A stretch of DNA of 64,000 nucleotides. Origin: a virus. The position numbers were made by a program, and so were the translations under genes. Positions 978-16,666 of the stretch are shown here, piece by piece. The notes beneath the pieces are model-generated. The model did not search any database, was not told the origin of the DNA, and worked only from the letters and a program-made list of their open reading frames with translations. How positions within the stretch are numbered: the stretch's first letter is position 1; each line of letters opens with the position of its first letter. The stretch spans positions 1-64,000 of IMG/VR virus record IMGVR_UViG_3300045972_000140; one strand, written 5' to 3'.

Positions 978-1901
978 TTATTCTTTAAAATATTCAATGG
1001 TTTTTAATAAACCGGTTTCTAAGTTAACAGTTGGTTTCCACTTTAATAGTTTCTTTGCAACAGTAATATCGGGCTGGCGTTGCTTTGGATCATCTTCCGG
1101 GAGTGGTTTATATAATATGCTGCTAGATGATCCTGTAAGTTTTATAACCTTTTCTGCCAATTCTAATATAGTAAATTCGGAAGGATTACCTATGTTAATA
1201 GGCCCTGTTATATTATCATCTGTTGCCATTAACGCCATCATGCCATCAATTAAATCATCCACATAGCAAAAGCTACGTGTTTGGTCACCTTGACCGTAAA
1301 CAGTAATATCTTGTTGGTTTAGTGCCTGAACAATAAAGTTGCTAACAACTCTACCATCACCTTCTGCCATTCGTGGACCATATGTGTTGAATATACGCAT
1401 TATCTTTACGCGCACATCGTGCATACGGTGATAATCCATAAACAATGTTTCTGCTGCGCGTTTACCTTCATCGTAGCAACTACGAATTCCTACGGGATTT
1501 ACATTACCCCAATATTCTTCAACTTGAGGATGAACAACAGGATCTCCATATACTTCTGATGTTGATGCTTGCAATATTTTAGCGCCTGTGCGTTTTGCAA
1601 GTCCTAGCATATTGTATGCACCTAGGACACTTGTTTTCATTGTCTGAATAGGATCGTGCTGATAATACTTAGGACTAGCGGGACAGGCTAAGTTATAAAT
1701 TTGATCTACTTCTATATATAGTGGAAAACAGACATCTTGCCTAATAACTTCAAAATTCTTAAAATCAAGTAGGTGATTTATATTGTCTTTACTACCAGTG
1801 AAATAGTTATCCACACACAATACGTGATGACCTTGTTTAACTAACCTATCACAGAGGTGACTACCAATGAAGCCGGCTCCGCCCGTAACTAATATTTTCA
1901 T
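978..1901 (-). CDS. NAD-dependent epimerase/dehydratase, UDP-glucuronate decarboxylase-like
   Basis: 307 residues, usual length for the extended short-chain dehydrogenase family. The start [16 protein letters not shown] carries the Rossmann TGGAGFIG motif at the very N-terminus; the open frame extends upstream but that part overlaps the preceding gene and is not family-like. The catalytic YxxxK is in SCYDEGK, followed by the typical [10 protein letters not shown] and [16 protein letters not shown] signatures. These wordings are closest to UDP-glucuronate decarboxylases (UDP-xylose synthases) and dTDP-glucose 4,6-dehydratases; the reaction on a nucleotide sugar is inferred. The gene follows the radical SAM gene after only four bases, so the two are probably co-transcribed. 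It would supply an activated sugar for the glycosyltransferase-like genes nearby. Confidence 0.85.
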
Positions 1902-1905
1902 TATA

Positions 1906-3225
1906 TTATAAATTCTTACAGTGAATATAAAATTCACCAAGTTCAGGAAATACATCTGCAAAATTAACATTTAATATCTTACTAGTTTTTTCCATTTCAG
2001 TATAAAACTTTTTTAAAATATAAGGATCGGCCGGAGGTGCCGATAATATACCTGCCTTGATAGATTTTAGAAAATTAATATAATCTTGTTTGAATATTTT
2101 GTTGCGATATTGATTATTTTCCATGAAATTAATCGCATAATCTATGTACACAGAAAAGGATGCAGGTAAATTAAATGCAAATAGATACTTCGGTGTTGCT
2201 ACCATACTAATCGGTAATCCAATAAATTTATTATATTTGTCGATTAATGCTTTATGCCATTTTAAAAATTCAACAAATCGCGGAATGGCCAATAAATTTA
2301 TAACAGGATGTATGGTAATCATTTCGGGATGAACATTGGAGGACATTAATAGGTGTACATTTTTTTCAAAATTATCCCACTTGAGTTTTGTCCTTATAAA
2401 TTCTGCTTGCGTACCAATCGACTCCATACTTATAGAAACATATACCCGAAATATGGTGGAAAGTTTTTCAATATATTCTAAAAATTTTACAAATTGTTTT
2501 TCCGGAGTGTTTAAATTAGTAACGATAGATAGTTGTACTGTGTGTGGCGTGAAATCTTTGTATATGTCCATTAATTTATCCATGTACACATAAAATTCCG
2601 GCATAATTGTAGGCTCGCCCCCGAGTATAGAAATTGAACGTATATTATTCTTCGATGTATTGATCCATTGCCATGCACCCGATACAAATACATTATCCTG
2701 AATGTTAAGATTAACAGTCTTATATCTGCTAAGTTCTATTGATTTTTCGTTTAGTTTTCTCAACGCCCATTGTGTGCTACTATTCTCGTTACAATAGACA
2801 CACTGTAAATCGCATAAATTACTCAACACAATCTCTGCACGATCTATATATGTACTTTCTAAAATTTTACTGTTTATGTCTACAGACTTCGATATTTCTT
2901 GTAAATCTGTTGTTCCAAATTCGTGTAGTAATCGTTCACCTAGGATCTCTTGGACATTATTTCCATCTCTAAGCCGCATACTAATTGCACCAGAATCTTC
3001 TACCTTCCAGCATTCGGTACAATCTTCGTGCCTTACCCCGGTAAGAGACATCAGCCGTTTTTGTTTTTCAAATTCTGTGTTTAAGAAAAAATCTGTGTTG
3101 CCCATTTCATTAATATTAACCGATCTATCGGGGCTCTTACAACACATTTTAAATGTCGATTTTGAGGTATTTATAATAGGGTACGCCCAAAGATGCGTGC
3201 ATATTGTGCGTGATATATCGGCCAT
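1906..3225 (-). CDS. radical SAM enzyme with extra N-terminal cysteine (twitch-like) region
   Basis: 439 residues. The [4Fe-4S]-SAM motif CDLQCVYC is at residues 138-145 (C-x3-C-x2-C), followed by the GGEPT motif that contacts SAM. The region before the core carries CTHLW, CC and CTECW cysteines, an arrangement seen in phage 'twitch domain' radical SAM proteins where an auxiliary cluster is likely. The architecture resembles the plus-strand protein at 3975-5078. It lies between the spanin genes (three bases downstream of Rz1) and the sugar epimerase in one minus-strand unit. Substrate unknown. The separation from the plus-strand radical SAM block by the lysis genes is unusual. Confidence 0.85.
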
Positions 3226-3228: not shown

Positions 3229-3498
3229 TTATTTACAAGCGTTAAACTTTGATAATAATTCTATCTCGTAACCTAAGCTTAAATCTCTGTCGGACAACAA
3301 GCATTTTGTCTTATCAAAAATATCCGATGTGTCTGTTAATTTACCAAAACAATAATCGGGAGTAACTGGTGCAACTTCTTTGCAAGGTACCGCAACAGGT
3401 ACTTCTACTTTTTGCGTAACAACTTTTACAGTTGGTTCTGTTGTTGCACAACCCGCCAAGCACAATAATGAAACTAAAATTAATTTATTTGTTAGCAT
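3229..3498 (-). CDS. Rz1: Rz1-like outer-membrane spanin lipoprotein
   Basis: 89 residues. MLTNKLILVSLLCLAGCATT is a lipoprotein signal with lipobox LAGC, so a mature protein with a lipidated cysteine near residue 16 is expected at the outer membrane. The remainder is short and proline/valine-rich (TVKVVTQKVEVPVAVPC), as in o-spanins. Its start lies inside the end of the upstream i-spanin gene (14-base overlap), the usual nested or overlapping Rz/Rz1 layout. Function: fuses inner and outer membranes in the last step of lysis of a Gram-negative host. Confidence 0.8.
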   Translation of the reverse strand: MLTNKLILVSLLCLAGCATTEPTVKVVTQKVEVPVAVPCKEVAPVTPDYCFGKLTDTSDIFDKTKCLLSDRDLSLGYEIELLSKFNACK

Positions 3499-3889
3499 TT
3501 TTTAATACCTCATTGATAAGAGAATTTGCGGCATCGCACTTTGGTATGTTTGCTTCTGCTTGGCGCTTTAATAAATCAGCCGCTTGCTGTCTATAGGTAT
3601 TTGCCGTATCTTGAGCTTTTTTAACCTCGACTGCGTGTGCCGCAACTCGTGCATCGGCATCTAACTTTAGCTTGTCAATTGCTGTATTTTGAGCCTGTAT
3701 ATCATTTTGCAATTGTTTAAGATTGGCCTGCGATTCTGTAAGTTGCGTTGTAATTGTTGCTTTTTCGGCTACCAATGTTGCTTTTTCAGATTTTAGAATT
3801 TGTATATACCCGAAACCTCCTGCAAGAATAGCAACCAATATCAGCCCAATTACTAGATTTTTGTTGTTTAATAAGAATGATAGAAACAT
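3485..3889 (-). CDS. Rz: Rz-like inner-membrane spanin
   Basis: 134 residues: an N-terminal membrane anchor (LVIGLILVAILAGGFGYI, about residues 12-30), then a long heptad-rich coiled coil (about 32-110) and a short tail with PKCDAANSLINEVL, a pattern common in phage i-spanins. The Rz1-like lipoprotein gene overlaps its 3' end. No endolysin or holin is visible beside it. A GATAAATA box sits upstream at 3908-3915 and AAAGGAG directly precedes the start, so late expression is likely. Confidence 0.8.
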   Translation of the reverse strand: MFLSFLLNNKNLVIGLILVAILAGGFGYIQILKSEKATLVAEKATITTQLTESQANLKQLQNDIQAQNTAIDKLKLDADARVAAHAVEVKKAQDTANTYRQQAADLLKRQAEANIPKCDAANSLINEVLKNANK

Positions 3890-3927: not shown

Positions 3928-3935
3928 GATAAATA
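3928..3935 (+). promoter_or_regulatory. late-promoter-like box GATAAATA, plus strand
   Basis: CAGATAAATATG on the plus strand, 40 bases upstream of the radical SAM block. A second near match, AATAAATACAG, ends directly before the ATG at 3975. It is divergent from the spanin promoter. Confidence 0.5.
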
Positions 3936-3974: not shown

Positions 3975-5078
3975 ATGAACAAAGATTACAGATGCACTTT
4001 GCCATTTACGGGACTTACCCGATTACATCTTCACTTAAAAGAAGTAGTGCCTTGCTGTAAAATAAAGTCGTGGAAATATGACGATGAATTACTAACAGAA
4101 AAACACATTGCACTTCGACAAGATATTATAGACAATGTAAAAAGCCCGCTTTGCAAATCCTGTTGGGACATAGAAGACGAAGGTGGATATTCGTATAGAC
4201 AACGTAGATCAGAGCACTTTGCCACTGGATGGAATATTACAGATGCAACTGCACCTATTACAAAAATAGAGGTAAAGTTTTCAAATAAATGTCAGTTGAT
4301 GTGTATGTATTGTGGGCCGGATAATTCTACAATGTGGGAAACCGCACATACAATGAAATATCCAATTACTGCCGGATATTACACATCGCACAGCATAAAG
4401 ATAGAAGATGCCGTAGACGTTTCTAAATTAACAGAAGTACGAGTAACTGGTGGCGAACCTATGTTAGAAGAACAGTGTATTGATTTTTTACTGAAATTAC
4501 CGTATAACAAAGATAGAAAATTATCTATAATTACTAACTTATCATACGGTGATACAACAATAAATGAATTATTAAAAATCACAAAGTTGCATCCTAATAT
4601 AGATGTATTATGTAGTTTAGATGCAATAGGCGAAAACATAACTAGACGATTCCTAAATTGGAAACTTTGGGAAAGAAACTATTATTCGTTACTTGACGAT
4701 TTACAACTTCGTAGGAAAGAAAATCCTACCGCAACTGTACAAATATTAGTGACAGTTAATATACTAAATTATAAGAATTTACAGGAAATTATTAATTATC
4801 ACATAAACAATATTAAGAACGGATATCAGGGTATTCACTTTGTTCTTAACTATGTTAGTTTGGATGAAAAATTATCTATTAAGTCCAAGGAAGTTGATCG
4901 AGGATATAAAATAGTAATATCAGAAGACGATAGTGCCCTGCTATCGAAAATAGAAAGAAATATGATAGAATCGATGAATAGTCTACTAGATACTATTACT
5001 GTAGATAAAGAGTTAGAACAACAAACTGAGAATTTTTTAAAAGAATATAATGACTATACGCCCAATAAAAATACATAA
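3975..5078 (+). CDS. radical SAM enzyme, first gene of the plus-strand block
   Basis: 367 residues. The cluster motif CQLMCMYC is at residues 106-113 and GGEPM follows at about residue 157. Before the core there are CTLPF, PCCKI and LCKSCW cysteines, the same extra N-terminal cysteine layout as the minus-strand protein at 1906-3225; the two are probably distant paralogues. The last 29 bases overlap the start of the next gene, so translation is probably coupled. It belongs to a run of four radical SAM genes ending in a glycosyltransferase-like gene. A peptide or glycan modification is plausible, but no precursor peptide is visible. Confidence 0.85.
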   Translation: MNKDYRCTLPFTGLTRLHLHLKEVVPCCKIKSWKYDDELLTEKHIALRQDIIDNVKSPLCKSCWDIEDEGGYSYRQRRSEHFATGWNITDATAPITKIEVKFSNKCQLMCMYCGPDNSTMWETAHTMKYPITAGYYTSHSIKIEDAVDVSKLTEVRVTGGEPMLEEQCIDFLLKLPYNKDRKLSIITNLSYGDTTINELLKITKLHPNIDVLCSLDAIGENITRRFLNWKLWERNYYSLLDDLQLRRKENPTATVQILVTVNILNYKNLQEIINYHINNIKNGYQGIHFVLNYVSLDEKLSIKSKEVDRGYKIVISEDDSALLSKIERNMIESMNSLLDTITVDKELEQQTENFLKEYNDYTPNKNT

Positions 5079-6039
5079 AACAAAAGAACAGAATTCAAGA
5101 CTGATTGAATGGAAATTAGGTAATACATGTAATTACGATTGTTCCTTTTGTGATATCAGTAATAAAGCAAGAGACCAACCTTGGTTAGATATCGACGTAT
5201 GTAAACATGTATGTACAAAATTAATGGCACAAGCAGATAGTGCTGGGAAGAAAATATTTTTTCAATTTACTGGAGGAGAGCCGACATTATATCCTAACTT
5301 CTTAGAACTTTGCAAATTCGTATCAGACAATGGACATTTTGTTAAAGTATTAACAAACGGAAGTAGGACAATGCGCTGGTGGGAAGAAATAGCAGAAGCC
5401 AACGTGCTTAATACATTATATCTAACTATACACACCGAACAAAATCCAGATATAGATCATTTAATTAAATTAATAAAACTGTTCGAAAAGAAACCTGTAT
5501 TTGTATTAGCCCAGTCTACGGCACCTGTAAATATATTCAATGAAGCATATGCTGCACATAAAAAAATTCTCGAGAGCACAGCGGTATGTGCAAGTTTAAA
5601 ACCTATCAATACTGGGCACAAACATCTTTCATTTATAGACAAATATACAGATGAACAGTTGGAAATATTAAAAGCTAATGGATTAATTAAAAGTGAAAAC
5701 TATCGAGGTACAAAAGCAGAACCAACAAATTGGCACGGCTCGGACTTGGAAGTAACATATTCGGATAATTCTACTAGTGTAATGTCTGCCCATAGAATTT
5801 TGACAACTAAACAAAATACCTATCAAGGATGGGATTGTTCTGTCGGAATGGATTATTTAACAATTATACACGACAAAGCATATCGTGGTATATGTAGGCA
5901 GGGCGGATCTATTTGGTCAATTTATGACGACAACATAGGATTCATGATGGAGCCTATTAATTGCAAAAGCGAAAGATGTACATGCCTTGCTGACCTAAGC
6001 GAAAACAAAATAGATCCAACATTTAAAAATAATGTATAA
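5050..6039 (+). CDS. radical SAM enzyme, second gene of the block
   Basis: 329 residues. The motif CNYDCSFC lies near the N-terminus (residues 27-34) and FTGGEPTLYPNF follows, as in compact radical SAM cores. C-terminal cysteines (MDYLTIIHDKAYRGICRQGG and CKSERCTC) could hold an auxiliary cluster. The start overlaps the previous gene by 29 bases and the end overlaps the next by 8. Substrate unknown. Confidence 0.85.
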   Translation: MTIRPIKIHKTKEQNSRLIEWKLGNTCNYDCSFCDISNKARDQPWLDIDVCKHVCTKLMAQADSAGKKIFFQFTGGEPTLYPNFLELCKFVSDNGHFVKVLTNGSRTMRWWEEIAEANVLNTLYLTIHTEQNPDIDHLIKLIKLFEKKPVFVLAQSTAPVNIFNEAYAAHKKILESTAVCASLKPINTGHKHLSFIDKYTDEQLEILKANGLIKSENYRGTKAEPTNWHGSDLEVTYSDNSTSVMSAHRILTTKQNTYQGWDCSVGMDYLTIIHDKAYRGICRQGGSIWSIYDDNIGFMMEPINCKSERCTCLADLSENKIDPTFKNNV

Positions 6040-7090
6040 GCTAGAGAATATAAAACAAGTACACCTAGAAATGACAGAGCGGTGTCAAGCCGCTTGCCCT
6101 ATGTGTCCTCGTATGAATTCGAAAGGAGAAGTTAATCCACGATTAACAATGAGCGAATTATCGTTTGACGATTTTGTAAAGATATTTCCTCCCGACTTTA
6201 TAAAACAATTAGATAAACTAAACATGTGTGGCAACTTCGGTGACCCTGCTGCTGCCAAAGACACATTAGAAGTATTTAGATATATTAGATTACATAATCC
6301 AACTATGGTACTTGAAATGTTTACTAACGGTGGGCTCAGGCATACCGAGTGGTGGATTGAATTGGCGCACATCCTAGGTAAAAATGGTAGGGTTATTTTT
6401 AGTGTAGATGGGTTAGAAGATACTAATCACATATACAGAAAAAATGTTAATTGGGGTATTCTAAGAAATAATATTGTGGCGTTTATAAATGCAGGTGGTA
6501 GGGCAGTTTGGGAATTTCTTATCTTTGCACACAATCAACATCAATTAGAAGAAGCAAGGGCATTAAGTAAAGAATTAGGATTTATTAGTATAGTGTTTAA
6601 AAAAAGTTCAAGATTTCACATCGACCTAAATACTGTTCGTACAGCAATAGTAAAACACAAAGGAGTTACTACCGAAATAACTGCACCTACCCAGGAATAT
6701 CAAAATATAGTTTCAACCAAGCAAACTCCTATACTTCAAAAATATGGGTCCGATAATGAGTTTTGTAATAAGACTGCTATATCATGTAAAGCAATAACCC
6801 GTAGTGGCATTTTTATCTCAGCAGAAGGATTAATGATGCCTTGTTGCTGGCTTGGCGGAGCAATGTATTGGAATGTTAAAGAAGAAAACGAGATATGGAA
6901 ACTAATAGATCAAATAGGTGGAAAAGATAAATTAGATGCAAGGAACGGACTAGCTACTGTTTTTAATTCAGGTATATTAGAACTTATACAAGATAGTTGG
7001 AATAAATCAAGTGTGGCAGACGGAAGGTTGCTTACCTGTATTAGAACATGTAGTTCAGAATTTGACCCAATAGGCTCACAATATGTATAA
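6032..7090 (+). CDS. radical SAM/SPASM-like enzyme, third gene (paralogue of the fourth)
   Basis: 352 residues. The motif CQAACPMC is at residues 18-25. The C-terminal half has a SPASM-like cysteine set: ISCKAI, then LMMPCCWLGG, then CIRTCS. The gene is closely similar to its downstream neighbour at both protein and DNA level (shared MYK-ENIKQVHLE start and shared NPRLTMSEL and GDPAAAKDTLEVF blocks), so it arose by tandem duplication. SPASM enzymes typically modify peptides or proteins; here the target is unknown. Confidence 0.85.
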   Translation: MYKLENIKQVHLEMTERCQAACPMCPRMNSKGEVNPRLTMSELSFDDFVKIFPPDFIKQLDKLNMCGNFGDPAAAKDTLEVFRYIRLHNPTMVLEMFTNGGLRHTEWWIELAHILGKNGRVIFSVDGLEDTNHIYRKNVNWGILRNNIVAFINAGGRAVWEFLIFAHNQHQLEEARALSKELGFISIVFKKSSRFHIDLNTVRTAIVKHKGVTTEITAPTQEYQNIVSTKQTPILQKYGSDNEFCNKTAISCKAITRSGIFISAEGLMMPCCWLGGAMYWNVKEENEIWKLIDQIGGKDKLDARNGLATVFNSGILELIQDSWNKSSVADGRLLTCIRTCSSEFDPIGSQYV

Positions 7091-8165
7091 AATAGAAAAT
7101 ATAAAACAAGTGCACCTAGAGATAACTGAGAAGTGCCAAGCAGGATGTGCAATGTGTGGAAGAACATGGGGAGCGGGTAACGTTAATCCAAGATTAACAA
7201 TGAGCGAATTATCATTAGAAGATTGTAAAACTATATTCCCTGTCGAATTTGTGAAACAACTGCACCATATATTTTTATGTGGTACGTTTGGTGATCCTGC
7301 TGCTGCTAAAGATACACTTGAAGTTTTTAAGTATTTTAGAGAATGCAACCCCGACTTAATACTAACAATGCATACAAATGGCGGGCTCAGGAATACAGCA
7401 TGGTGGACTGAATTGGCCCAAGTTTTGAGTAATCGTGGAAGTAAGGTAGTTTTTAGTGTAGACGGATTACAAGATACTAATCACATATATAGACAAAATG
7501 TTAATTGGGATATAGTCGAAAGTAATATGAGAACGTTTATAAGTGCAGGTGGCAATGCGGTATGGGAATATCTTATTTTTCAACATAATCAACATCAAAT
7601 TGAAGAGGCAAGGGCGCTAAGTGAAGAAATAGGATTTAAGAACATATTGTTTAAGAAAAGTGCAAGATTCTCGGGCAACTTGGATTCATTGAAATCAGAT
7701 GTGACGTTTAAAACTAGGAGAGGAGAATCGGTGATATTAGCAGAACCCGATTCTCCTCATCAAAATATTGAAAAAACAAAACAAGCATCTGTGCTAACAC
7801 AATATGGAACAAGCGAAAACTATTACAACACTACACCAATATCATGTAAAGCAATAAACGAGTCATCGATCTACATAACAGCGGAAGGATTATTTTTGCC
7901 GTGTTGTTGGCTAGCAGGACCTATGTATAATTGGTCAGACGATAATATAGATTATAAACAAAACGATGTTTGGAAACTAATAGACAAAGTAGGTGGAAAG
8001 AGTAAGCTCGATGCAAGGAAAGGACTAACTAATGTTTTTAATTCAGGTATATTGGAAATGATAGAAAAAGGATGGAGTACAGATCGCGAACACGGCAGAA
8101 TATTTCGATGTGCACAAGTATGCGGCATAGGATATTCACCATATAGTGTAGAAATAACAAAATGA
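7083..8165 (+). CDS. radical SAM/SPASM-like enzyme, fourth gene (tandem duplicate)
   Basis: 360 residues. The motif CQAGCAMC is at residues 18-25. C-terminal cysteines in ISCKAI, LFLPCCWLAG and FRCAQVCG repeat the neighbour's auxiliary-cluster pattern, so both copies appear functional. It overlaps the previous gene by 8 bases and the next by 4, as expected for a tightly coupled operon. The copies have diverged most between about residues 195 and 240, perhaps reflecting different substrates. Confidence 0.85.
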   Translation: MYKIENIKQVHLEITEKCQAGCAMCGRTWGAGNVNPRLTMSELSLEDCKTIFPVEFVKQLHHIFLCGTFGDPAAAKDTLEVFKYFRECNPDLILTMHTNGGLRNTAWWTELAQVLSNRGSKVVFSVDGLQDTNHIYRQNVNWDIVESNMRTFISAGGNAVWEYLIFQHNQHQIEEARALSEEIGFKNILFKKSARFSGNLDSLKSDVTFKTRRGESVILAEPDSPHQNIEKTKQASVLTQYGTSENYYNTTPISCKAINESSIYITAEGLFLPCCWLAGPMYNWSDDNIDYKQNDVWKLIDKVGGKSKLDARKGLTNVFNSGILEMIEKGWSTDREHGRIFRCAQVCGIGYSPYSVEITK

Positions 8166-9082
8166 TTTTTGATTTAACAACTTACGATGTAGTTTTTATT
8201 AGTTACGACGAACCAAATGCAGAACAAAATTGGGAAGATTTAATAACAAAAGTACCAAAGGCAAAGCGAGTGCACGGTGTGAAAGGGCTTGCTACTGCTC
8301 ACCGCACTGCAGGTAGGTTATCGACCACTGATAAGACAATAACAATAGACGGTGATAATAGATTATTCAAAGACCTTACTAACAAGTCTTTTGAAATAAA
8401 TGACGAATGCGACTTTAAAGAAATACTATTGAACTGGCCAAGTAAAAATATTATAAACGGGCTAGAATACGGCAATGGCGGTATTAAATTATGGCCAACT
8501 CATATATTAGCAAATTGCAGTACAGACGAGTTTGCAATAAAAGGGACCCCGCAGCAAGTAGATTACAGCTACGGTTTAAAAAATCAAATTACATTCCATG
8601 AGTGTTATTCGTATATCTATCCAAATGCTAGTCCGTTACAGGCATGGCGTGCTGGTTTCAGAGAAGGGGTTAAATTAGGGCTAAAGCGTGGAGTAAAAAT
8701 TGATGACTTGGCAGACTACTGGCCGGGCGGACGCAAGCGGTTATCATTATGGATGACTGTGGGCGCCGATGTAGAAAATGGTATATGGTCAATATTAGGT
8801 GCGAGACAAGGTTGTTACCTAACTCAATTTACAGACTGGGATATGTCTAACAACGGTGATTTTGATTATCTCAACAATTATTTCCAAAATAATGTTGCAA
8901 TTCTGTCTGAAGAAGAAGCGTTAATAGAATGTGTTAAGCTAGGCAAGATAATAGGTCACAAATTTGAAATTTGTGACCCATTTACTGCCGAACAAAGTAA
9001 GTTTGTAAAAAACATGAACCCTGATCCGGATGCACAAGAGCGGTCAGGTTGGCATTGGGTTTCTAAACCACAGTGGGATTAG
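8162..9082 (+). CDS. glycosyltransferase-like protein (GT-A/DxD type)
   Basis: 306 residues. The N-terminus YDVVFISYDEPNAEQNWEDL is followed by KRVHGVKG and an IDGDN acidic motif (D63, D65) of the kind that binds a metal and nucleotide sugar in GT-A glycosyltransferases. The family occurs in many marine and freshwater phages with unproven function. It closes the plus-strand radical SAM operon with a 4-base overlap, so its product probably acts in the same pathway. Its end overlaps by four bases, tail to tail, the minus-strand sulfotransferase-like gene. Confidence 0.6.
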   Translation: MIFDLTTYDVVFISYDEPNAEQNWEDLITKVPKAKRVHGVKGLATAHRTAGRLSTTDKTITIDGDNRLFKDLTNKSFEINDECDFKEILLNWPSKNIINGLEYGNGGIKLWPTHILANCSTDEFAIKGTPQQVDYSYGLKNQITFHECYSYIYPNASPLQAWRAGFREGVKLGLKRGVKIDDLADYWPGGRKRLSLWMTVGADVENGIWSILGARQGCYLTQFTDWDMSNNGDFDYLNNYFQNNVAILSEEEALIECVKLGKIIGHKFEICDPFTAEQSKFVKNMNPDPDAQERSGWHWVSKPQWD

Positions 9083-9834
9083 TCAAAGCCTAGGTTTTGT
9101 TTAATCCAGTCCCAGTTCCCTATAACATCCTGCGGGCGACTGTTATTTTGTTTAAACAAGGTGATAGGTTTTTTAACAATATCTAATTCAAGATCTCTGG
9201 TTGCAAAATACTCTTGTAACCTGTTCAACATAGTGTCTAGATGATAGTTCTCAAAATCATCTTCGTACACTAGATGTAAATTAGATCTATTTCTAGATTT
9301 TAAATTTTTCTCAACCTTTTCCCAATATATAATTGAGCTGTATTCATCCTTAATAAATTCATCAGCTGTTGTTAAAATCTTTAATTCAGATGTATCAACC
9401 TTAAACCATTTTTCTATTTTACCGGCCTGCATAAAACTTGTAAACCGTTTGAGTTTATTACGCCTCTTCACTGTAATAAAAATGGCATCATCTAAATCAA
9501 ACAAGAAATACAAATTAAACTGATCAAGGTAGTGACGTTGTATTTTTATTACCTTTGTGCGTGGATCAAGCTCATCCATAATTGCTAACGATCTTTGCGG
9601 GTTAGCACGTATTGCTTCTATGAGTGGTATAGTCTCGTTTGGTACGTTATATTCCTCCGAAAAACGCACTCTTTCGTGATCCTCGAGTAATAGCAAGCTG
9701 TCTGGGTTACTATTGCTTATGTGCGTACTAAAAAACTCGTTTAACACACGCAGACGTGGAAAACATTCTAATATTTCGCACAGTAGATTACTGCCCGATC
9801 TAGGCTCTGCAAATATAACAATTAATCTAGACAT
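9079..9834 (-). CDS. sulfotransferase-like protein
   Basis: About 251 residues from the chosen start MSRLIVIFAEPRSGSNLL. That ATG has GGAG six bases upstream, whereas the longer in-frame extension has none. EPRSGSNLL is the 5'-phosphosulfate-binding loop of the sulfotransferase P-loop family, and the rest is compatible with that fold. The expected reaction is transfer of sulfate from PAPS to a sugar, lipid or protein hydroxyl; the substrate is unknown. A second, only distantly similar member is encoded at 29845-30639. Confidence 0.7.
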   Translation of the reverse strand: MSRLIVIFAEPRSGSNLLCEILECFPRLRVLNEFFSTHISNSNPDSLLLLEDHERVRFSEEYNVPNETIPLIEAIRANPQRSLAIMDELDPRTKVIKIQRHYLDQFNLYFLFDLDDAIFITVKRRNKLKRFTSFMQAGKIEKWFKVDTSELKILTTADEFIKDEYSSIIYWEKVEKNLKSRNRSNLHLVYEDDFENYHLDTMLNRLQEYFATRDLELDIVKKPITLFKQNNSRPQDVIGNWDWIKQNLGFD

Positions 9835-9853
9835 ATATACTCCGTTAAACACA

Positions 9854-9861
9854 TATTTATC
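9854..9861 (-). promoter_or_regulatory. late-promoter-like box GATAAATA
   Basis: Minus-strand CGATAAATATG, 20 bases upstream of the preferred sulfotransferase start at 9834. Its position inside the longer open frame supports the shorter start. Confidence 0.55.
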
Positions 9862-9917
9862 GAGCACAAACGACGAAGCCCCTAGTACCGGTTAAGATAC
9901 TAGGGGCGTCTATTGTG

Positions 9918-9992
9918 TGGACCCGCCTACAGGAATCGAACCTGTATCCCTACGTTCGTAGCGTAGTGTACTATCCATTGTACTAAGGCGAG
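9918..9992 (-). tRNA. tRNA-Arg(ACG)
   Basis: Cloverleaf with encoded CCA. Acceptor CTCGCCT/AGGCGGG, anticodon loop CTACGAA, T-loop TTCGATT. A34 would need deamination to inosine to read CGN codons. It is the last tRNA of the array in the direction of transcription. Confidence 0.9.
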
Positions 9993-10004
9993 TTAAATTA
10001 AAAC

Positions 10005-10056
10005 AGAATGCGATTTGGTTTCATTTTCAATTGAATTTAATTGCTGAATGCATTCT
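10005..10056 (-). ncRNA. E1: structured intergenic RNA element (open form)
   Basis: Minus strand: AGAATGC-ATT-CAGCAA, a small TTCA/TGAA hairpin, then GCATTCT followed by GTTTTA. AGAATGC and GCATTCT form a 7-bp stem. It fills the gap between tRNA-Leu(UAA) and tRNA-Arg. It is one of six open-form copies whose stems covary while CNGCAA and the 3' GUUUUA stay constant. Function unknown. Confidence 0.55.
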
Positions 10057-10063
10057 TTAAATT

Positions 10064-10140
10064 TGGTACCCCTCCCCGGATTCGAACCGGGATCCAACAG
10101 ATTTTAAATCTGGCCGCACTACCAATTAGCGTACAGGGGC
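10064..10140 (-). tRNA. tRNA with leucine anticodon UAA, short variable loop
   Basis: Encoded CCA, A73. Acceptor GCCCCTG/GAGGGGT has a G-G mismatch at 7-66. The anticodon arm CCAGA-TTTAAAA-TCTGT gives UAA. The variable loop is only about five bases (TGGAT), unlike the class II tRNA-Leu of bacteria. It shares its acceptor with the UAG and CAA tRNAs of this array. Confidence 0.8.
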
Positions 10141-10216
10141 ATAAATTCGATAATGTAGCGGGTCAACTTCTTCAGGGATTAGACATACCACTTGCTCTCG
10201 TTGCAAGCTTCTCAAA

Positions 10217-10585
10217 TTATGTAACTTCACCAAGCTCTGCCTGTAATTTCTTTAACAGTGCAATCTTGGAATCTTTATCTTTTAAATCTTTCTTATATTT
10301 CTTTAGTCTAGCAGCTTCGGCGCGGGCAACCTTTTCTTTTTCTAATTTTGCTGCTTCTTCTTTTGCTCTTGCAATTTCCTCAGAAACAGTTTTTGCAACA
10401 AAGTCTTTAATATTGGTTGGTTGTTCAATTATCTTAAAACCTTTACGATATGATGCATTCTGCAATACCACAAAATCTTCATGGGATATTTCTTCCCATT
10501 CTGTTATACTATTTACAATGTGGCGATAATCGTCATCATAATCATAGATGTCAGTTGTTATAAGAATTGCTACTTTGTGTGTCAT
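10217..10585 (-). CDS. hypothetical protein with C-terminal coiled coil
   Basis: 122 residues; not recognised. The N-terminal 60 residues look globular (MTHKVAILITTDIYDYDDDY). About residues 65-118 form a highly charged helix (EEIARAKEEAAKLEKEKVAR) typical of a coiled coil. AGAGG precedes the start. It sits between tRNA-Leu(UAA) and tRNA-Lys(UUU), so it is carried on the same minus-strand transcript or processed from it. Confidence 0.65.
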   Translation of the reverse strand: MTHKVAILITTDIYDYDDDYRHIVNSITEWEEISHEDFVVLQNASYRKGFKIIEQPTNIKDFVAKTVSEEIARAKEEAAKLEKEKVARAEAARLKKYKKDLKDKDSKIALLKKLQAELGEVT

Positions 10586-10601
10586 ATTGACCTCTTTAAT
10601 T

Positions 10602-10679
10602 TGGTAGGGCTGGAGGGACTCGAACCCTCTCCTGGCAGATTAAAAGTCTGCTGTGCTAACCATTGAACACTACAACCCC
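10602..10679 (-). tRNA. tRNA-Lys(UUU)
   Basis: Acceptor GGGGTTG/CAGCCCT, A73, encoded CCA. Anticodon arm GCAGA-CTTTTAA-TCTGC. Confidence 0.92.
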
Positions 10680-10687
10680 AAATTTTC

Positions 10688-10777
10688 TGGAGGAAGATGT
10701 GGGATTCGAACCCACGGACCGTTTTAATGATCGTCACTTTAGCAAAGTGATGCAATAAGCCTCTCTACCAATCTTCC
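10688..10777 (-). tRNA. tRNA-Ser(GCU)
   Basis: Class II tRNA of 90 bases with a long variable arm. Acceptor GGAAGAT/ATCTTCC, anticodon arm TCACT-TTGCTAA-AGTGA, encoded CCA. Position 73 is U rather than the usual G of tRNA-Ser. Confidence 0.9.
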
Positions 10778-10821
10778 ATAAACTTATTATACTACAAAGT
10801 TAAGTACTTTGCAAACTATTC

Positions 10822-10895
10822 TGGCAGCCCGTGTAGGAATCGAACCTACGCATACTGAGTCAGAGTCAGTCATTCTTCCATTAAACTAACAGGCA
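10822..10895 (-). tRNA. tRNA-Gln(CUG)
   Basis: Anticodon arm ACTGA-CTCTGAC-TCAGT, G73, encoded CCA. The first acceptor position is an unpaired U1/U72, in keeping with the weak 1-72 pair of glutamine tRNAs. Confidence 0.88.
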
Positions 10896-10899
10896 ATTC

Positions 10900-10971
10900 T
10901 GGACCCCCGTAAAGGACTCGAACCTTTGCAAGCTGGTTTAGAAGACCGGCCGCCGTTCCATCGGACGGGAG
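10900..10971 (-). tRNA. tRNA-Arg(UCU)
   Basis: Acceptor CTCCCGT/ACGGGGG, anticodon loop CTTCTAA, T-loop TTCGAGT, encoded CCA. Reads AGA/AGG, codons frequent in an AT-rich genome. Confidence 0.88.
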
Positions 10972-10979
10972 TTATGTAC

Positions 10980-11054
10980 TGGTGGTAGTGATAGGAATCG
11001 AACCTACTTTGTGCAGCGTATGAAGCTGTTGCATTACCTTAATGCTACACTACC
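10980..11054 (-). tRNA. tRNA with anticodon CAU (elongator Met or, after modification, Ile)
   Basis: Acceptor GGTAGTG/CACTACC with a normal G1-C72 pair, so not an initiator. Anticodon loop TTCATAC, A73, encoded CCA. Whether C34 is converted to lysidine cannot be told from sequence. Confidence 0.88.
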
Positions 11055-11124
11055 AAATCAGACTACTTTTTGTTTTTTTAAAACCATATTAAAAATTTTA
11101 ATTTGCTGTAAGTAATCTTTAAAT

Positions 11125-11787
11125 CTATTGCGGACCTAGCGGTGCTAGATCCGTATCGTATTCTTTGCCGTTTATTTTTACAGGCGGTGGACGCATTCCT
11201 TTTGCTAATGCTGCCCTAAATGCGGTTGCTTCGTCATCACTTAACGGTTCGTATTTTTCGCTAACTACATCATCGTAAATCATCGGCATTGTATCAGCAA
11301 AACTGTTTGTCAACTCTTCAATTGTTTTCTTAGACCTAGCTGGCGGTAATTTCTTACGGGATGCTTCTTCAAAAATGTCAACTGTTTCGTTTGCTTTCCA
11401 ATATACAGAATCTATAACAACTCCATAATTTAACGCTGCATGTTCTTTTAACTTTTTCTCTACATCAGCTAACTTGCGCGTTGCTGTATACTTACTCAAC
11501 ACAAAATGCTTGGTTGTTTCTACAGCTACAATAAAGAAATGAGATCTTTCGTCTATAGGCATTGCTCTATATCTATACATACCGCCTAATATTTCTAATG
11601 ACGAAAATACCTCAACAACAGACATACGCACCATTTCTAAGCGCCATTCTCTGCGCTCCTCTAATGTCATTTTTGCTTCATCTATAATTGTTTGGCCGGC
11701 ATCGGTTTGTGTTCCGGCCGGTAAATAATATTCTAATATAGATTTCGGCTTTGACCTTGGTGTTTTTTTAAAAAAAGAAAATAGCAT
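11125..11787 (-). CDS. hypothetical protein
   Basis: 220 residues; family not recognised. It begins MLFSFFKKTPRSKPKS, has no membrane segment after that, and is mixed alpha/beta in composition with a charged C-terminal half (KKTIEELTNSFADTMPMIYD) and a proline-rich end. A GATAAATA box lies eight bases upstream of its ATG, so it is probably a late gene with a very short leader. It is isolated between the tRNA-Met and tRNA-Val genes. Confidence 0.65.
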   Translation of the reverse strand: MLFSFFKKTPRSKPKSILEYYLPAGTQTDAGQTIIDEAKMTLEERREWRLEMVRMSVVEVFSSLEILGGMYRYRAMPIDERSHFFIVAVETTKHFVLSKYTATRKLADVEKKLKEHAALNYGVVIDSVYWKANETVDIFEEASRKKLPPARSKKTIEELTNSFADTMPMIYDDVVSEKYEPLSDDEATAFRAALAKGMRPPPVKINGKEYDTDLAPLGPQ

Positions 11788-11794
11788 AGTGTAT

Positions 11795-11802
11795 TATTTA
11801 TC
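11795..11802 (-). promoter_or_regulatory. late-promoter-like box GATAAATA
   Basis: Minus-strand CGATAAATAATAC directly upstream of the hypothetical gene ending at 11125. The short distance to the ATG suggests an almost leaderless transcript, or a start further inside the gene. Confidence 0.5.
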
Positions 11803-11836
11803 GTAATTTACGCTGCCTAAAATGCTAATACTTAAC

Positions 11837-11910
11837 TGGTGGATCGTAAAGGAATCGAACCTTTGTATCTGTCGAGTCAGAACAGAACTCTACCATTGAG
11901 CTAACGAACC
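11837..11910 (-). tRNA. tRNA-Val(GAC)
   Basis: Anticodon arm CTGTT-CTGACTC-GACAG, A73, encoded CCA. Acceptor GGTTCGT/ACGATCC has a U-U mismatch at 3-70. U37 is unusual. Confidence 0.85.
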
Positions 11911-11914
11911 AAAT

Positions 11915-11974
11915 TGGAGCGGCGTATGGAGTTTTACCCCGGGCGTATTTGTCGGCTTTTATAGTCCCCACCGC
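11915..11974 (-). ncRNA. possible short CCA-ended tRNA-like element
   Basis: Sixty bases that start GCGGTGG and end ACGCCGC-T-CCA; six of seven acceptor pairs form. There is no recognisable anticodon arm and no TTCRA T-loop; a GGGGT-AAA-ACTCC mini-hairpin is in the T-arm place. It could be a decayed tRNA. Confidence 0.3.
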
Positions 11975-12011
11975 GTTGGACCACCGTACCCCTGTACTTC
12001 TTGCAAGAAAC

Positions 12012-12099
12012 TGGAGGAAAATAACAGAATCGAACTGTCACCGCTATTAACAGTGGAACATCTTTCCAAGATGCTTAGTGACCATCACTTCTACTTTCC
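12012..12099 (-). tRNA. tRNA-Ser(GGA)
   Basis: Class II with long variable arm. Acceptor GGAAAGT/ATTTTCC, anticodon loop TTGGAAA, T-loop TTCGATT, encoded CCA, U73. Confidence 0.88.
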
Positions 12100-12110
12100 A
12101 TAATTAAAAC

Positions 12111-12165
12111 AGAATCCTTATTTTTCAATTAAAAGTTGAATTTTTATATTTGCTGAACGGATTCT
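12111..12165 (-). ncRNA. E2: structured intergenic RNA element (open form)
   Basis: AGAATCC-GTT-CAGCAA, inner TTCAA/TTGAA hairpin, then GGATTCT followed by GTTTTA. Relative to E1, two stem positions change together (GC to CC with GC to GG), preserving pairing. Confidence 0.55.
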
Positions 12166-12171
12166 TAAAAC

Positions 12172-12245
12172 TGGTGCGGGCTAGGAGAATCGAACTCCTG
12201 ACTAAACGTTGGCAACGTATAATTTTACCATTAAACTAAGCACGC
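12172..12245 (-). tRNA. tRNA-Gly(GCC)
   Basis: Acceptor GCGTGCT/AGCCCGC with one mismatch, anticodon loop TTGCCAA, A73, encoded CCA. Confidence 0.85.
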
Positions 12246-12250
12246 ATATT

Positions 12251-12338
12251 TGGCGGGGCGCAATGGAATCGAACCATCACCGCTATTAACAATGGAACGG
12301 TATTCAAAGCCGCTTAACTCCCAGAGTTTCTGCACCCC
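12251..12338 (-). tRNA. tRNA-Ser(UGA)
   Basis: Class II, G73, encoded CCA. Acceptor GGGGTGC/GCGCCCC, anticodon loop TTTGAAT. It shares most of its anticodon and variable arm with the adjacent CGA copy, so the two are a tandem duplication. Confidence 0.85.
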
Positions 12339-12343
12339 ATATT

Positions 12344-12431
12344 TGGCGGATCATAATAGAATCGAACTATCACCGCTATTAACGATGGAACGGTATTCGA
12401 AGCCGCTTAGTGCCCAGCACATCTATGATCC
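12344..12431 (-). tRNA. tRNA-Ser(CGA)
   Basis: Class II, G73, encoded CCA. Acceptor GGATCAT/ATGATCC, anticodon loop TTCGAAT. Its core is nearly identical to the UGA neighbour, but the acceptor differs. Confidence 0.85.
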
Positions 12432-12450
12432 AAATGAGAGATGTTATTTA

Positions 12451-12517
12451 ACGTCACCTACCCTCCCTGACTATTTTGAACTCCTGCTTGCCATTGTGGT
12501 GCAGGTAACCGTGGCGT
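12451..12517 (-). ncRNA. possible decayed tRNA-like element without CCA
   Basis: Ends ACGCCAC and GTGACGT pair at six of seven positions, enclosing a CCTGC/GCAGG hairpin and a TTCAAAA stretch that recalls a T-loop. No CCA and no readable anticodon. Confidence 0.25.
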
Positions 12518-12603
12518 CTTCAAAACTTAATTAACAGTATTGTACTTCATCCTGATCAGGGCCTATATACAATGGTGCTCCCGTCTTTCGACACTATTAA
12601 ACT

Positions 12604-12679
12604 TGGTACATCGTGACGGGCTCGAACCGCCGACATTCTGAATGTAAATCAGACACTCTACCAACTGAGTTAACGATGT
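12604..12679 (-). tRNA. tRNA-Val(UAC), copy 1
   Basis: Acceptor ACATCGT/ACGATGT, anticodon arm TCTGA-TTTACAT-TCAGA, T-loop TTCGAGC, A73, encoded CCA. Confidence 0.92.
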
Positions 12680-12687
12680 ATATTCTT

Positions 12688-12957
12688 TTAAAATATCGAT
12701 GCCCCAAATCCAGTTTCGTCATCTTCAACAAATTCTGGATAAAGTTCATCGTGCAGCATCTGCAATCTCATTAAGGCCATTAAGACTTCGTATGGAAATC
12801 CTTGCCTATCATTTCTTCCATCTGCGATAAGTTTTCCCATATATTTTGGAAATGCCTTATCGCCCCACATTAACTCAATACCTTTTCCTATTCTAGGAAA
12901 TGCTGCGTGTATAAGTAATAGCGAACTATTTAGCGTATTTGAGTGCTCATCGGTCAT
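12688..12957 (-). CDS. hypothetical protein downstream of and overlapping rpoZ
   Basis: 89 residues from the ATG at 12957 (MTDEHSNTLNSSLLLIHAAF), which overlaps the end of rpoZ by 11 bases; an alternative start lies 24 bases upstream. Mostly helical with an acidic C-terminus (EFVEDDETGFGASIF). Not recognised. The overlap suggests translational coupling to the omega-like protein and perhaps a joint role. Confidence 0.6.
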   Translation of the reverse strand: MTDEHSNTLNSSLLLIHAAFPRIGKGIELMWGDKAFPKYMGKLIADGRNDRQGFPYEVLMALMRLQMLHDELYPEFVEDDETGFGASIF

Positions 12958-13177
12958 TATCTTTTTCATTTTTAATGCCAACTTTCTTTAGGTAATCACG
13001 ACCTACTAAACCTTCTTCGATTTCACGAAGTGCCGTAACTGTTGGACCATTCTTAGATGGTGGCAACAAAGATTTATATCCACGCTTCAATTCGCGAACA
13101 CGAGCGGCAGCAATCAGTACCATATCAAATCTGTTTCCGATCATTTCTACTGCTTTTTGCGATGTAATTCTTGCCAT
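12947..13177 (-). CDS. rpoZ: RNA polymerase omega subunit homologue
   Basis: 76 residues, full omega length apart from the variable tail. MARITSQKAVEMIGNRFDMV and the later TALREIEEGLVGRDYL match the conserved core of bacterial omega (E. coli form [20 protein letters not shown] ... IALREIEEGL). Omega binds beta-prime and assists RNA polymerase assembly. A phage copy could replace or alter host omega, for example to favour late transcription; that is inference. No beta or beta-prime gene is in this window. Confidence 0.85.
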   Translation of the reverse strand: MARITSQKAVEMIGNRFDMVLIAAARVRELKRGYKSLLPPSKNGPTVTALREIEEGLVGRDYLKKVGIKNEKDNDR

Positions 13178-13194
13178 ATAAACCTTAATAAAAT

Positions 13195-13267: not shown

Positions 13268-13299
13268 GAATAGTATTTATTATATTGTCTATTGCGTTG

Positions 13300-13551: not shown

Positions 13552-13569
13552 ATGTCTAACCTAAACATA

Positions 13570-14245: not shown

Positions 14246-15703
14246 TTAAAAGATACTTACACCTGTTAGCTCACTAAATCTGTAAGCGTCTTCCCAGGTA
14301 TTTACTAATGGCTCACCTCGCACATTTAAACTTGTATTCATTAGAATCGGGCAACCACTTGCATTGTGCCAGGCCTCCAGTAAGAGTCTAAATTGAGAAT
14401 TTGTAGTAGATGTTACTGTTTGTACTCTGCTACTGTTGTCAATATGACATATACCGGGAAGTTCATTAGGATATAAACATTGTGAAACATATTGCATGTA
14501 AGGAGAAGTAGACACCGGTATATCGAAATAACTGTGTGCGTATTCTTCAAGGATTGCTGGCGCAAATGGCCTAAATTGTTCTCTGTGCTTAACTGTATTC
14601 ATTAAGGCCTTTGCATTCGGGCCGCGTGGGTCGCACAATAGACTCCTGTTACCGAATGCCCTTGGTCCAAATTCTGCTCGCCCATTTGCAACTGCAACAA
14701 TCTCCCCGTTTTTTAATTTTTTAACGATCGAATCTATATCTAAAGTACGCTCAATGTTTGTACCTAAAAACGGAGTATCCCATGTTAAGTAAGAATTTGT
14801 ATATGCTGCTACTGCGCCAATTGCACTACCGGAATCACCGGGATTCGGCATTATCCAAATATTTTTAAATATATTTTCTCTTGCGATGATGCTGTTTGCA
14901 ACACAGTTGAGAGCAATTCCTCCCATTAATACTAAATTATCGCTGTTACAAATAGTTTTCATCCATTTGATGGTGTGTAATAAATAATCCTCAACAATTG
15001 ATTGTACGCTTGCTGCAATATCGTACTTACTAAAGTTTGCATTTGACGGCACCCACCAGTTGCAACCCTTATGCATATTAAACTTTAATTCAAAGTCGGG
15101 TGCTGATATATGCTGAAAGAATGTGTCTAATATTTCATTTTTATATATCGGTTGTCCGTATGCAGCCATCCCCATTAGGATGTATTCTTCTTCGTTTGGT
15201 TTCAAACCTAAATATGCTGTCATTGCAGAATAAAACAATCCAATACTATTTGGATATTTCTTTGTCCATATTTTTGATAGCACTGTATCTTTTGCAGACC
15301 AAATACTAACAGTGTCCCATTCCCCGATTGCATCAACTACTAATATTGCAGCATCACGAAATCCACTTGTAAAATATCCGCCTGCGGCATGACTACAGTG
15401 ATGACCTGTAAAGTGTACAGGCAAGTGATTCAATTTGAATTTCTTTAACTCGTTTCTATGTGTAGCAAACGTAATGGGCTGTCTTGCATATAGTTGTCGC
15501 GTGTTCTTTAATAGTGGTTGTTCAAACCAAACAACTTCAGTCGGAGATCCATACTGTTGCATATCGTTAATAATGTGTTGATTCAATACACTATCATTCT
15601 TAATACGGCTGTACCGCTCACTATGCGCGGCCCAAACTATTTTATCTCCATCAATTAATGCAAGACTTGCATCATGGTTGTTCGATGTAATACCTAATAT
15701 CAT
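14246..15703 (-). CDS. carbamoyltransferase (NodU/CmcH/TobZ family)
   Basis: 485 residues. The N-terminal kinase-like domain starts MILGITSNNHDASLALIDGD, with HHCSHAAGGYF carrying the conserved histidines and GGIALNCVANS. The C-terminal half has the carbamoyl-phosphate-handling signature RAEFGPRAFGNRSLLCDPR and EQFRPFAPAIL. It is somewhat shorter than the 550-600 residues of characterised members but ends at a natural stop. The family carbamoylates hydroxyls of sugars or antibiotics; some phage members act in modification pathways. It is divergent from the SGNH-like gene at 15854, with which it may form a pair. Stop six bases from tRNA-Cys. Confidence 0.9.
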   Translation of the reverse strand: MILGITSNNHDASLALIDGDKIVWAAHSERYSRIKNDSVLNQHIINDMQQYGSPTEVVWFEQPLLKNTRQLYARQPITFATHRNELKKFKLNHLPVHFTGHHCSHAAGGYFTSGFRDAAILVVDAIGEWDTVSIWSAKDTVLSKIWTKKYPNSIGLFYSAMTAYLGLKPNEEEYILMGMAAYGQPIYKNEILDTFFQHISAPDFELKFNMHKGCNWWVPSNANFSKYDIAASVQSIVEDYLLHTIKWMKTICNSDNLVLMGGIALNCVANSIIARENIFKNIWIMPNPGDSGSAIGAVAAYTNSYLTWDTPFLGTNIERTLDIDSIVKKLKNGEIVAVANGRAEFGPRAFGNRSLLCDPRGPNAKALMNTVKHREQFRPFAPAILEEYAHSYFDIPVSTSPYMQYVSQCLYPNELPGICHIDNSSRVQTVTSTTNSQFRLLLEAWHNASGCPILMNTSLNVRGEPLVNTWEDAYRFSELTGVSIF

Positions 15704-15853: not shown

Positions 15854-16666
15854 ATGAAATATAATATAGATATCGAAGACTTTGGGAGAAAAACCTGGAA
15901 ATCAGGTACGTGGAACTCAACCGACACACAAGAAAATTATAAAGAGATATCATCAACTGGACTTAAAAATATATATAGGCCAGAGGATTTTGATTACAAA
16001 TATAATTCAAATCATTTTAGATGCGACGAGTTTACATTAAATTCGGAATTTCCTATATTATTTGCCGGATGTAGCATAACCGAGGGAGTTGGTGTTCCTA
16101 TAGAACATACATGGTCGCATATATTATTAGAAAAAATAAGACAGGCTACTGGTAAAAATATACCATATTGGAATATAGGAACAGCCGGAACCGGCATAGA
16201 TACTATTGCTAGGTTAACCTATTTATTTGCCGAAAAGTTAAATGCAAAATATCTATTCATTGTTATGCCGATGATATTTAGAAGAGAATATAGTGCAGAA
16301 GATAAATCTAATATTGCGTGGAATATAATAAATAAATGCAATGATGGGTCTCAGTATCCGTATGCAAATAGTGTAAATGAATTATTCTATGACCAAACAT
16401 TTGCCGAATGTCAAACATCAAGGAGTTGCATGATAATAGATTCTACACTAAAATCTATAAACTGTGAGGCGTATACCACATCTTGGTTACGCGACGATAC
16501 TCACGAACGAGAAGTTTTAAAAATGTTTCCTTATCTTAACTATCACAGAAATACAACACGGATAGTTTGTACCGATGTCGGTAGAGATAATATGCACCCT
16601 GGACCAATATGGCACAGACTGAAAGCAGAAGAAATATGGAATAATGTAAAACACAAATTTACATAA
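15854..16666 (+). CDS. SGNH/GDSL-like hydrolase
   Basis: 270 residues. FPILFAGCSITEGVGVP fits block I of the SGNH family, with serine in GCS in place of GDS, and DNMHPGPIWH near the C-terminus provides the D-x-x-H pair. The asparagine and glycine blocks are less clear. Such enzymes remove or transfer acyl groups from glycans and lipids. It is one of the few plus-strand genes, divergent from the carbamoyltransferase, which hints at a shared role in glycan decoration. Moderately sure. Confidence 0.6.
   Translation: MKYNIDIEDFGRKTWKSGTWNSTDTQENYKEISSTGLKNIYRPEDFDYKYNSNHFRCDEFTLNSEFPILFAGCSITEGVGVPIEHTWSHILLEKIRQATGKNIPYWNIGTAGTGIDTIARLTYLFAEKLNAKYLFIVMPMIFRREYSAEDKSNIAWNIINKCNDGSQYPYANSVNELFYDQTFAECQTSRSCMIIDSTLKSINCEAYTTSWLRDDTHEREVLKMFPYLNYHRNTTRIVCTDVGRDNMHPGPIWHRLKAEEIWNNVKHKFT

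What the first reader, a model, noticed from the sequence alone, without database searches (positions are those of the whole stretch)
3975..9082. Four overlapping radical SAM genes plus a glycosyltransferase-like gene
Five genes overlap by 4-29 bases on the otherwise unused strand, and four carry intact C-x3-C-x2-C motifs with additional cysteine sets. A fifth radical SAM gene lies close by (1906-3225). This density suggests a dedicated multi-step pathway, perhaps peptide or glycan modification. I see no precursor peptide. It may be an undescribed phage modification system.
Basis: partly seen in the sequence, partly recalled or inferred. Interest (0 to 1): 0.78.

Follow-up and report, generated by a model that had tools for sequence, protein, structure and literature searches.

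The report
Phage tail-fibre-linked radical SAM enzyme island
A virus of bacteria carries an unusually large set of iron-sulphur radical enzymes and sugar-transferase-like enzymes. Hundreds of related environmental viruses have them in a fixed order beside the tail-fibre genes, so they probably decorate the virus's attachment fibres with an unknown chemistry.

Summary
Five genes overlap by 29, 8, 8 and 4 bp; four are radical SAM (rSAM) genes with CxxxCxxC plus twitch-type cysteines, and the fifth has an AlphaFold model resembling the GT-A fold, with an invariant DxD. The 126,686-bp virus record has nine rSAM genes in two clusters. The second, at 109.2-116.9 kb, follows tail-fibre genes and two glycosyltransferase-like genes, and it holds a 41%-identical copy of the fifth gene.

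More than 580 matched stretches in IMG/VR encode relatives. In 151 viral loci the order is nearly fixed: tail fibres, f10, gt8a, gt8b, f7, gtA, cargo, gtB, f3, f13, rSAM array. A T4-like late motif, (G/T)ATAAATA, precedes tail-fibre genes and almost never the overlapping enzyme genes. In this phage the motif also lies 39 bp before cluster A. The core glycosyltransferase families are absent from 50,697 isolate records. Bdellovibrionota chromosomes carry much of the same enzyme set.

Best reading: a late-expressed pathway that decorates virion tail fibres; substrate and product are unknown. rSAM-rich islands in T4-like marine phages are already in print, so this is a new variant with a sharply defined architecture. 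Cluster A itself is a rearranged satellite of the standard module.

The parts
1906..3225 (-). rS0: N-terminal-twitch rSAM (NF033640, 220 bits over cut-off 170; subfamily rS11)
978..1970 (-). NAD-dependent nucleotide-sugar epimerase/dehydratase next to rS0 (ATG of MKILVTGG.. is probably the true start)
3928..3935 (+). GATAAATA late-promoter-like motif, 39 bp before the first gene of cluster A; a weaker AATAAATA lies at 3963
3975..5078 (+). rS1: rSAM with N-terminal twitch cysteines (C7, C27, C28, C60, C63) and CxxxCxxC at 106; closest to NF033640 (150.7 bits, cut-off 170)
5050..6039 (+). rS2: rSAM of the A3a subfamily with C-terminal twitch; two more A3a genes in cluster B
6032..7090 (+). rS3: rSAM of family A1; paralogue of rS4 (56% identity)
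7083..8165 (+). rS4: rSAM of family A1; AF2 pLDDT 93.0, best PDB match BlsE, then SuiB, SkfB, MoaA
8162..9082 (+). gtA family: GT-A-like protein with invariant DxD; extra copy of the core gtA at 108,214 of the record (41% identity)
9079..9867 (-). sulfotransferase-like protein (sub-threshold Pfam), homologous to a cluster B gene (28%); own GATAAATA at 9854
14246..15703 (-). carbamoyltransferase; same family as the island cargo CarbT (754 bits)
15854..16666 (+). protein grouped with the island's SGNH-like cargo family; no Pfam hit

Best explanation
The genes are part of a late-expressed pathway that chemically decorates the virion, most likely the tail fibres. In the lineage's standard arrangement, tail-fibre genes are followed without a break by f10, two GT8-like glycosyltransferases (gt8a, gt8b), f7 and the GT-A-like protein gtA. 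Then comes a variable array of twitch-type rSAM enzymes with tailoring enzymes (carbamoyltransferase, UDP-sugar dehydrogenase, epimerase, PP-loop/QueC-like, aminotransferase-like, sulfotransferase-like, 2OG-like). Shown here: fixed order, overlapping genes, the tail-fibre link, the late motif in front of tail fibres, and the spread across phages. Inferred: that gt8a, gt8b and gtA build or attach a glycan on the fibre, that the rSAMs oxidise, epimerise, decarboxylate or crosslink it, and that variation in the cargo changes host recognition or evasion. In this phage the standard module is cluster B; cluster A is a second, rearranged operon (rS1-rS2-rS3-rS4-gtA) with its own late motif.
For: Two clusters with nine rSAM genes and two gtA copies in the record. 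Strict order and adjacency in 151 viral loci: f10-gt8a 88/88, gt8b-f7 98/99, f7-gtA 96/99; gt8a before A1 43/43, A1 before NtA 73/73. TF4-f10 median gap is 56 bp; later core junctions overlap by a median of about 1-17 bp. The late motif precedes tail-fibre genes (21-75% by family) and 0-1% of gt8a, gt8b, f7, gtA and gtB, so the enzymes appear to ride on the fibre transcript. In this phage 29 of 67 ATAAATA sites lie at same-strand gene starts against 2.5 expected, including before cluster A, the first cluster B enzyme gene, a spanin-like gene and giant structural ORFs. Some phages keep the GT core with no rSAM cargo, as expected for a core plus variable tailoring slots. A carbamoyltransferase lies in this window, and UGD, epimerase and aminotransferase-like genes recur in the cargo.
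Against: No acceptor residue or product is known. Cluster A is not beside tail fibres. Bdellovibrionota carry gtA/gtB and the rSAMs with no tail-fibre genes recognised nearby, so those enzymes need not act on fibres. No member is assigned to a sugar-modifying rSAM family above cut-off. The loci were collected through A1 and gtA, so their mutual co-occurrence is conditioned, although the tail fibres, gt8a, gt8b, f7 and f10 were not used for selection. This record lacks f3, f13, gtB, NtA, AsnS and PLP.
Confidence: 0.5

Rival explanations
1. The enzymes remodel the host's surface polysaccharide or LPS during infection, blocking superinfection or easing release. This is the reading published for pelagimyophage glycosyltransferases.
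For: GT8-like enzymes, UGD, epimerase and aminotransferase-like genes are typical of O-antigen synthesis; the same enzyme set sits on bacterial chromosomes. PMC7029224 proposes it.
Against: Placement behind tail-fibre genes with a late motif. The core families examined (f10, gt8a, gt8b, f7, gtA, gtB) include no flippase or polymerase, though this was not searched for systematically.
Confidence: 0.22
2. The rSAMs directly modify peptide side chains (crosslinks, epimers, C-methyl groups) of a phage protein or a RiPP-like peptide.
For: Structure neighbours of rS4 include SuiB, SkfB, anSME and PqqE. The B12-rSAM in cluster B is nearest to RiPP C-methyltransferases, below cut-off. The weak fold neighbour of gtA is the peptide S-glycosyltransferase SunS.
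Against: No precursor was found: the conserved small protein f13 has no cysteine, is conserved end to end and is absent here. No RRE was tested. The co-occurring tailoring enzymes look sugar-like.
Confidence: 0.15
3. A diffusible small molecule or cofactor is made (natural-product pathway), acquired from or shared with Bdellovibrionota-like hosts.
For: Multi-rSAM plus PP-loop plus aminotransferase-like set shared with Bdellovibrionota chromosomes; phage A1 clade is sister to a Bdellovibrionota clade. Best rS4 structure match is BlsE of blasticidin S synthesis.
Against: Tail-fibre linkage and late motif; no transporter or resistance gene recognised in the core.
Confidence: 0.08
4. Hypermodification of phage DNA (rSAM isomerases, DNA glycosyl- or carbamoyltransferases).
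For: rSAM enzymes and glycosyl/carbamoyl transfer are known in phage DNA hypermodification (own knowledge).
Against: No thymidylate synthase-type hydroxymethylase or ThyX in the record (the record may be incomplete). Association is with tail fibres, not replication genes.
Confidence: 0.04

Closest known systems
Host recognition cluster (HRC) of pelagimyophages (PMC7029224)
   Same: T4-like phages with a variable region holding tail fibres, GT8-type glycosyltransferases and cassettes of radical SAM genes.
   Different: This lineage's portal is closest to the jumbo phages PA5oct/Atu_ph07. It has a fixed core f10-gt8a-gt8b-f7-gtA, and gtA, gtB, gt8b and f10 have no tblastn match in 50,697 isolate phage records, Pelagibacter phages included. 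Cluster A lies outside the tail-fibre region.
T4-like virus TARA_ERS488813_N000010 with 12 radical SAM genes plus ATC, Cas4, Grx and PaaD (PMC5332604)
   Same: Many rSAM genes in one marine T4-like virus. Genes that look like NfuA, PaaD, ClpP and IscU occur near some arrays here too.
   Different: That paper discusses Fe-S supply, not the tail-fibre/GT architecture. No NifU_N or FeS_assembly_P match in this record.
Twitch-domain radical SAM family NF033640 (N_Twi_rSAM)
   Same: rS0 exceeds the cut-off; rS1 and the NtB rSAM of cluster B align along nearly the full length.
   Different: rS2, rS3 and rS4 carry their extra cysteines at the C-terminus and score 29-44 bits; the family name gives no reaction.
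BlsE (cytosylglucuronate decarboxylase)
   Same: Best PDB structure match of rS4 (E 1.1e-11) and also hit by sequence profile (7vob, E 7.7e-4).
   Different: Only 17% identity; SuiB, SkfB and MoaA score nearly as well, so no reaction follows.

Membership tests
Radical SAM superfamily | CxxxCxxC cluster-binding motif in a radical SAM barrel | tested here: met
   One motif in each of five proteins, invariant in 48 A1 family members; rS4 model matches rSAM structures.
NF033640 twitch-domain radical SAM | Score over 170 bits along the full length | tested here: inconclusive
   rS0 220 bits met; rS1 150.7 not met; rS2-rS4 29-44 bits not met.
GT-A glycosyltransferase | GT-A fold with DxD metal/nucleotide site | tested here: inconclusive
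   D63 and D65 invariant in 44 aligned sequences; model pLDDT 88.7 but best PDB match E 1.2e-3 and TM 0.34; no Pfam family above cut-off.
RiPP system | Short precursor peptide beside the maturase | tested here: not met
   No candidate in the cluster; f13 is conserved end to end without Cys and absent from this record.
RiPP system | RRE (PqqD-like) domain | not tested
   -
Prokaryotic viperin | NF038283 over 180 bits | tested here: not met
   48.5 bits at best in the window.
Phage pyrimidine hypermodification | Thymidylate synthase-like hydroxymethylase in the genome | tested here: inconclusive
   PF00303 and PF02511 not found, but the record may be a fragment.
Pelagimyophage-type host recognition cluster | Variable island with tail fibres and glycosyltransferases | tested here: met
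   Cluster B; not met for cluster A, which lies between Rz-like genes and the tRNA array.
Pelagimyophage-type host recognition cluster | Location between VrlC and gp14 | not tested
   -

The most novel reading that the evidence does not exclude
A large uncultivated jumbo-phage lineage makes chemically modified tail fibres using a conserved multi-radical-SAM pathway (A1, NtA, NtB, A3 plus gtA/gtB) shared with Bdellovibrionota. It installs a modified sugar or side chain unknown in any virion.
Probability: 0.3. Interest if true: 0.85.

Novelty: new variant of a known kind. Interest (0 to 1): 0.62.

Why it matters
Radical SAM genes have been reported in environmental phages as unexplained auxiliary genes. 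Here they sit in fixed order behind tail-fibre genes that carry a late motif, and most of the set also occurs on bacterial chromosomes. That turns a vague auxiliary-gene list into a testable claim about how phage adhesins are modified, and gives a defined enzyme set for new radical chemistry.

Tried and rejected
Close relatives of rS1 and rS2 in IMG/VR by single-sequence scans: none confirmed. The gtA protein alone found nothing; the alignment did. Fe-S assembly genes in this record: none. Terminal repeats between the record's ends: none of 20 bp or more in the terminal 3 kb, so neither circularity nor closeness of clusters A and B across the ends can be claimed. Sigma-70 promoter scan: not above shuffles. 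f13 as RiPP precursor: rejected. PDB sequence search for gtA: nothing meaningful.
Full report
WHAT IS THERE. The window is bases 1-64,000 of a 126,686-bp virus record. The five reported ORFs exist, on one strand, overlapping by 29, 8, 8 and 4 bp. The four rSAM ORFs and the fifth rSAM ORF on the other strand (1906-3225) each hold one CxxxCxxC. Radical_SAM scores leave no doubt for three of the five; 3975-5078 is just under Pfam's cut-off but matches the twitch family NF033640 at 150.7 bits, and 6032-7090 is rescued by its 56% identity to 7083-8165. The extra cysteines form twitch-type sets, N-terminal in rS0 and rS1 and C-terminal in rS2-rS4, conserved at 80% or more in the family alignments.

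THE FIFTH PROTEIN. No library names it above cut-off. In an alignment of 44 sequences D63 and D65 (DxD) are invariant and it folds at pLDDT 88.7. The PDB matches are weak (best SunS S-glycosyltransferase, E 1.2e-3, TM 0.34). GT-A-like is therefore a reasonable but unproven label.

A SECOND CLUSTER. The same record has more rSAM genes at 109.2-116.9 kb, directly behind tail-fibre genes: f10, gt8a, gt8b, f7, a second gtA (41% identical to the window copy), two A3a rSAMs, an NtB rSAM and a B12-binding rSAM, with sulfotransferase-like and 2OG-like genes.

THE FAMILY. Alignment-based scans found 585 (A1) and 588 (gtA) matched stretches encoding relatives in IMG/VR, both capped. Clustering the genes of the fetched loci and assigning them by family HMMs gives 151 loci after removing repeats. 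The order is nearly rigid: tail fibres, f10, gt8a, gt8b, f7, gtA, [cargo], gtB, f3, f13, A1, NtA, then other rSAMs, PP-loop/QueC-like, PLP-like and SDR genes. Adjacencies: f10-gt8a 88/88, gt8a-gt8b 91/94, gt8b-f7 98/99, f7-gtA 96/99. Order: gt8a before A1 43/43, f13 before A1 65/65, A1 before NtA 73/73. Single loci hold up to 13 rSAM genes. Several phages have the GT core and no rSAM array. gtA, gtB, gt8b and f10 have no match in 50,697 isolate phage records. The portal is 58.6% identical to Pseudomonas jumbo phage PA5oct and its kin, and tail-adjacent TF17 has relatives in the Atu_ph07/121Q-type jumbo phages.

EXPRESSION CLASS. ATAAATA sites of this record lie at same-strand gene starts 29 times of 67, against 2.5 expected. 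The GATAAATA form lies before giant structural ORFs (44115-52034, 92498-101476), a spanin-like gene (3485-3889), a tail-fibre gene (103,970), the first enzyme gene of cluster B (105,491) and, at 39 bp, the first gene of cluster A. No site lies inside 3975-9082. In related loci (G/T)ATAAATA precedes 21-75% of tail-fibre genes by family but 0-1% of gt8a, gt8b, f7, gtA and gtB, and rarely the rSAMs, while the gaps between core genes are mostly overlaps. It resembles the T4 late promoter TATAAATA (own knowledge). The simplest reading is late co-transcription of fibre and enzyme genes. This is a sequence inference, not a measurement.

BACTERIAL COUNTERPART. Bdellovibrionota contigs with chromosomal neighbours (L180, L181, L209, L184, L186) carry A1, NtA, A3b, NtB, PLP-like, f3 and gtA/gtB homologues in various combinations. 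In the A1 tree the phage clade (42 phage and 4 others) is sister to a clade of 14 that is almost wholly Bdellovibrionota; rS3 and rS4 are a lineage-specific pair (100/100) inside the phage clade. Some 'bacterial' contigs such as L177, nearly the same gene set as phage contig L001, are probably viral.

WHAT IT DOES. Committed reading, confidence 0.5: a late pathway that decorates tail fibres, with glycosyltransferases building or attaching sugars and rSAMs plus other tailoring enzymes changing them. Shown: architecture, order, late motif, spread. Inferred: substrate, product, and the role in host recognition or evasion. rS4's structure neighbours span sugar-type (BlsE, BtrN, SpeY), peptide-type (SuiB, SkfB, anSME) and MoaA enzymes, so chemistry cannot be read from fold.

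CLUSTER A. In all 57 viral loci with both, gtA precedes A1; only the window has A1 directly followed by gtA. This record lacks f3, f13, gtB, NtA, AsnS and PLP. Cluster A is thus a rearranged satellite operon rather than the standard module.

NOVELTY. rSAM-rich T4-like marine viruses (PMC5332604) and rSAM cassettes in tail-fibre-containing host recognition clusters of pelagimyophages (PMC7029224) are published. The fixed GT core, its place behind tail fibres with a late motif, and the Bdellovibrionota counterpart were not found in the papers searched (open-access only). Hence new variant of a known kind.

CAVEATS. Loci were selected by A1 or gtA, so counts between those two are conditioned; the top-80 limit favours close relatives; loci are related by descent, so the order counts are not independent events; ORFs are mechanical; the record may be a fragment.

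Noticed in passing
record G000 119.5-122.0 kb (L018:5548-8047): TctA (PF01970, 285 bits) and a TctC-like gene (sub-threshold, 21.4 bits) of the tripartite tricarboxylate transporter on a phage genome, next to the rSAM cluster B.
   Followed up: partly
window 9918-23484: 29 tRNA genes on the - strand, interspersed with small ORFs, carbamoyltransferase and SGNH-like cargo genes.
   Followed up: no
L180, L181, L184, L186, L209: Bdellovibrionota chromosomal loci with A1, NtA, A3b, NtB, PLP-like, f3 and gtA/gtB homologues: an uncharacterised multi-rSAM pathway in predatory-bacteria relatives.
   Followed up: partly
L022, L025, L027, L093; L005:4991-5371: Genes that look like NfuA, PaaD/SufT, ClpP and IscU beside phage rSAM arrays, suggesting dedicated Fe-S supply.
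   Followed up: partly
L224-L247 (Microcoleus, Tychonema and other cyanobacteria): A long (about 527 aa) A1-related rSAM at a conserved chromosomal position without the other island genes.
   Followed up: no
L017:10552-12208: Two overlapping paralogous genes (41% identity) of unknown family inside cluster B.
   Followed up: no
whole record: GATAAATA is the dominant late-promoter-like variant (about 24 of 31 sites at same-strand gene starts) rather than T4's TATAAATA.
   Followed up: yes
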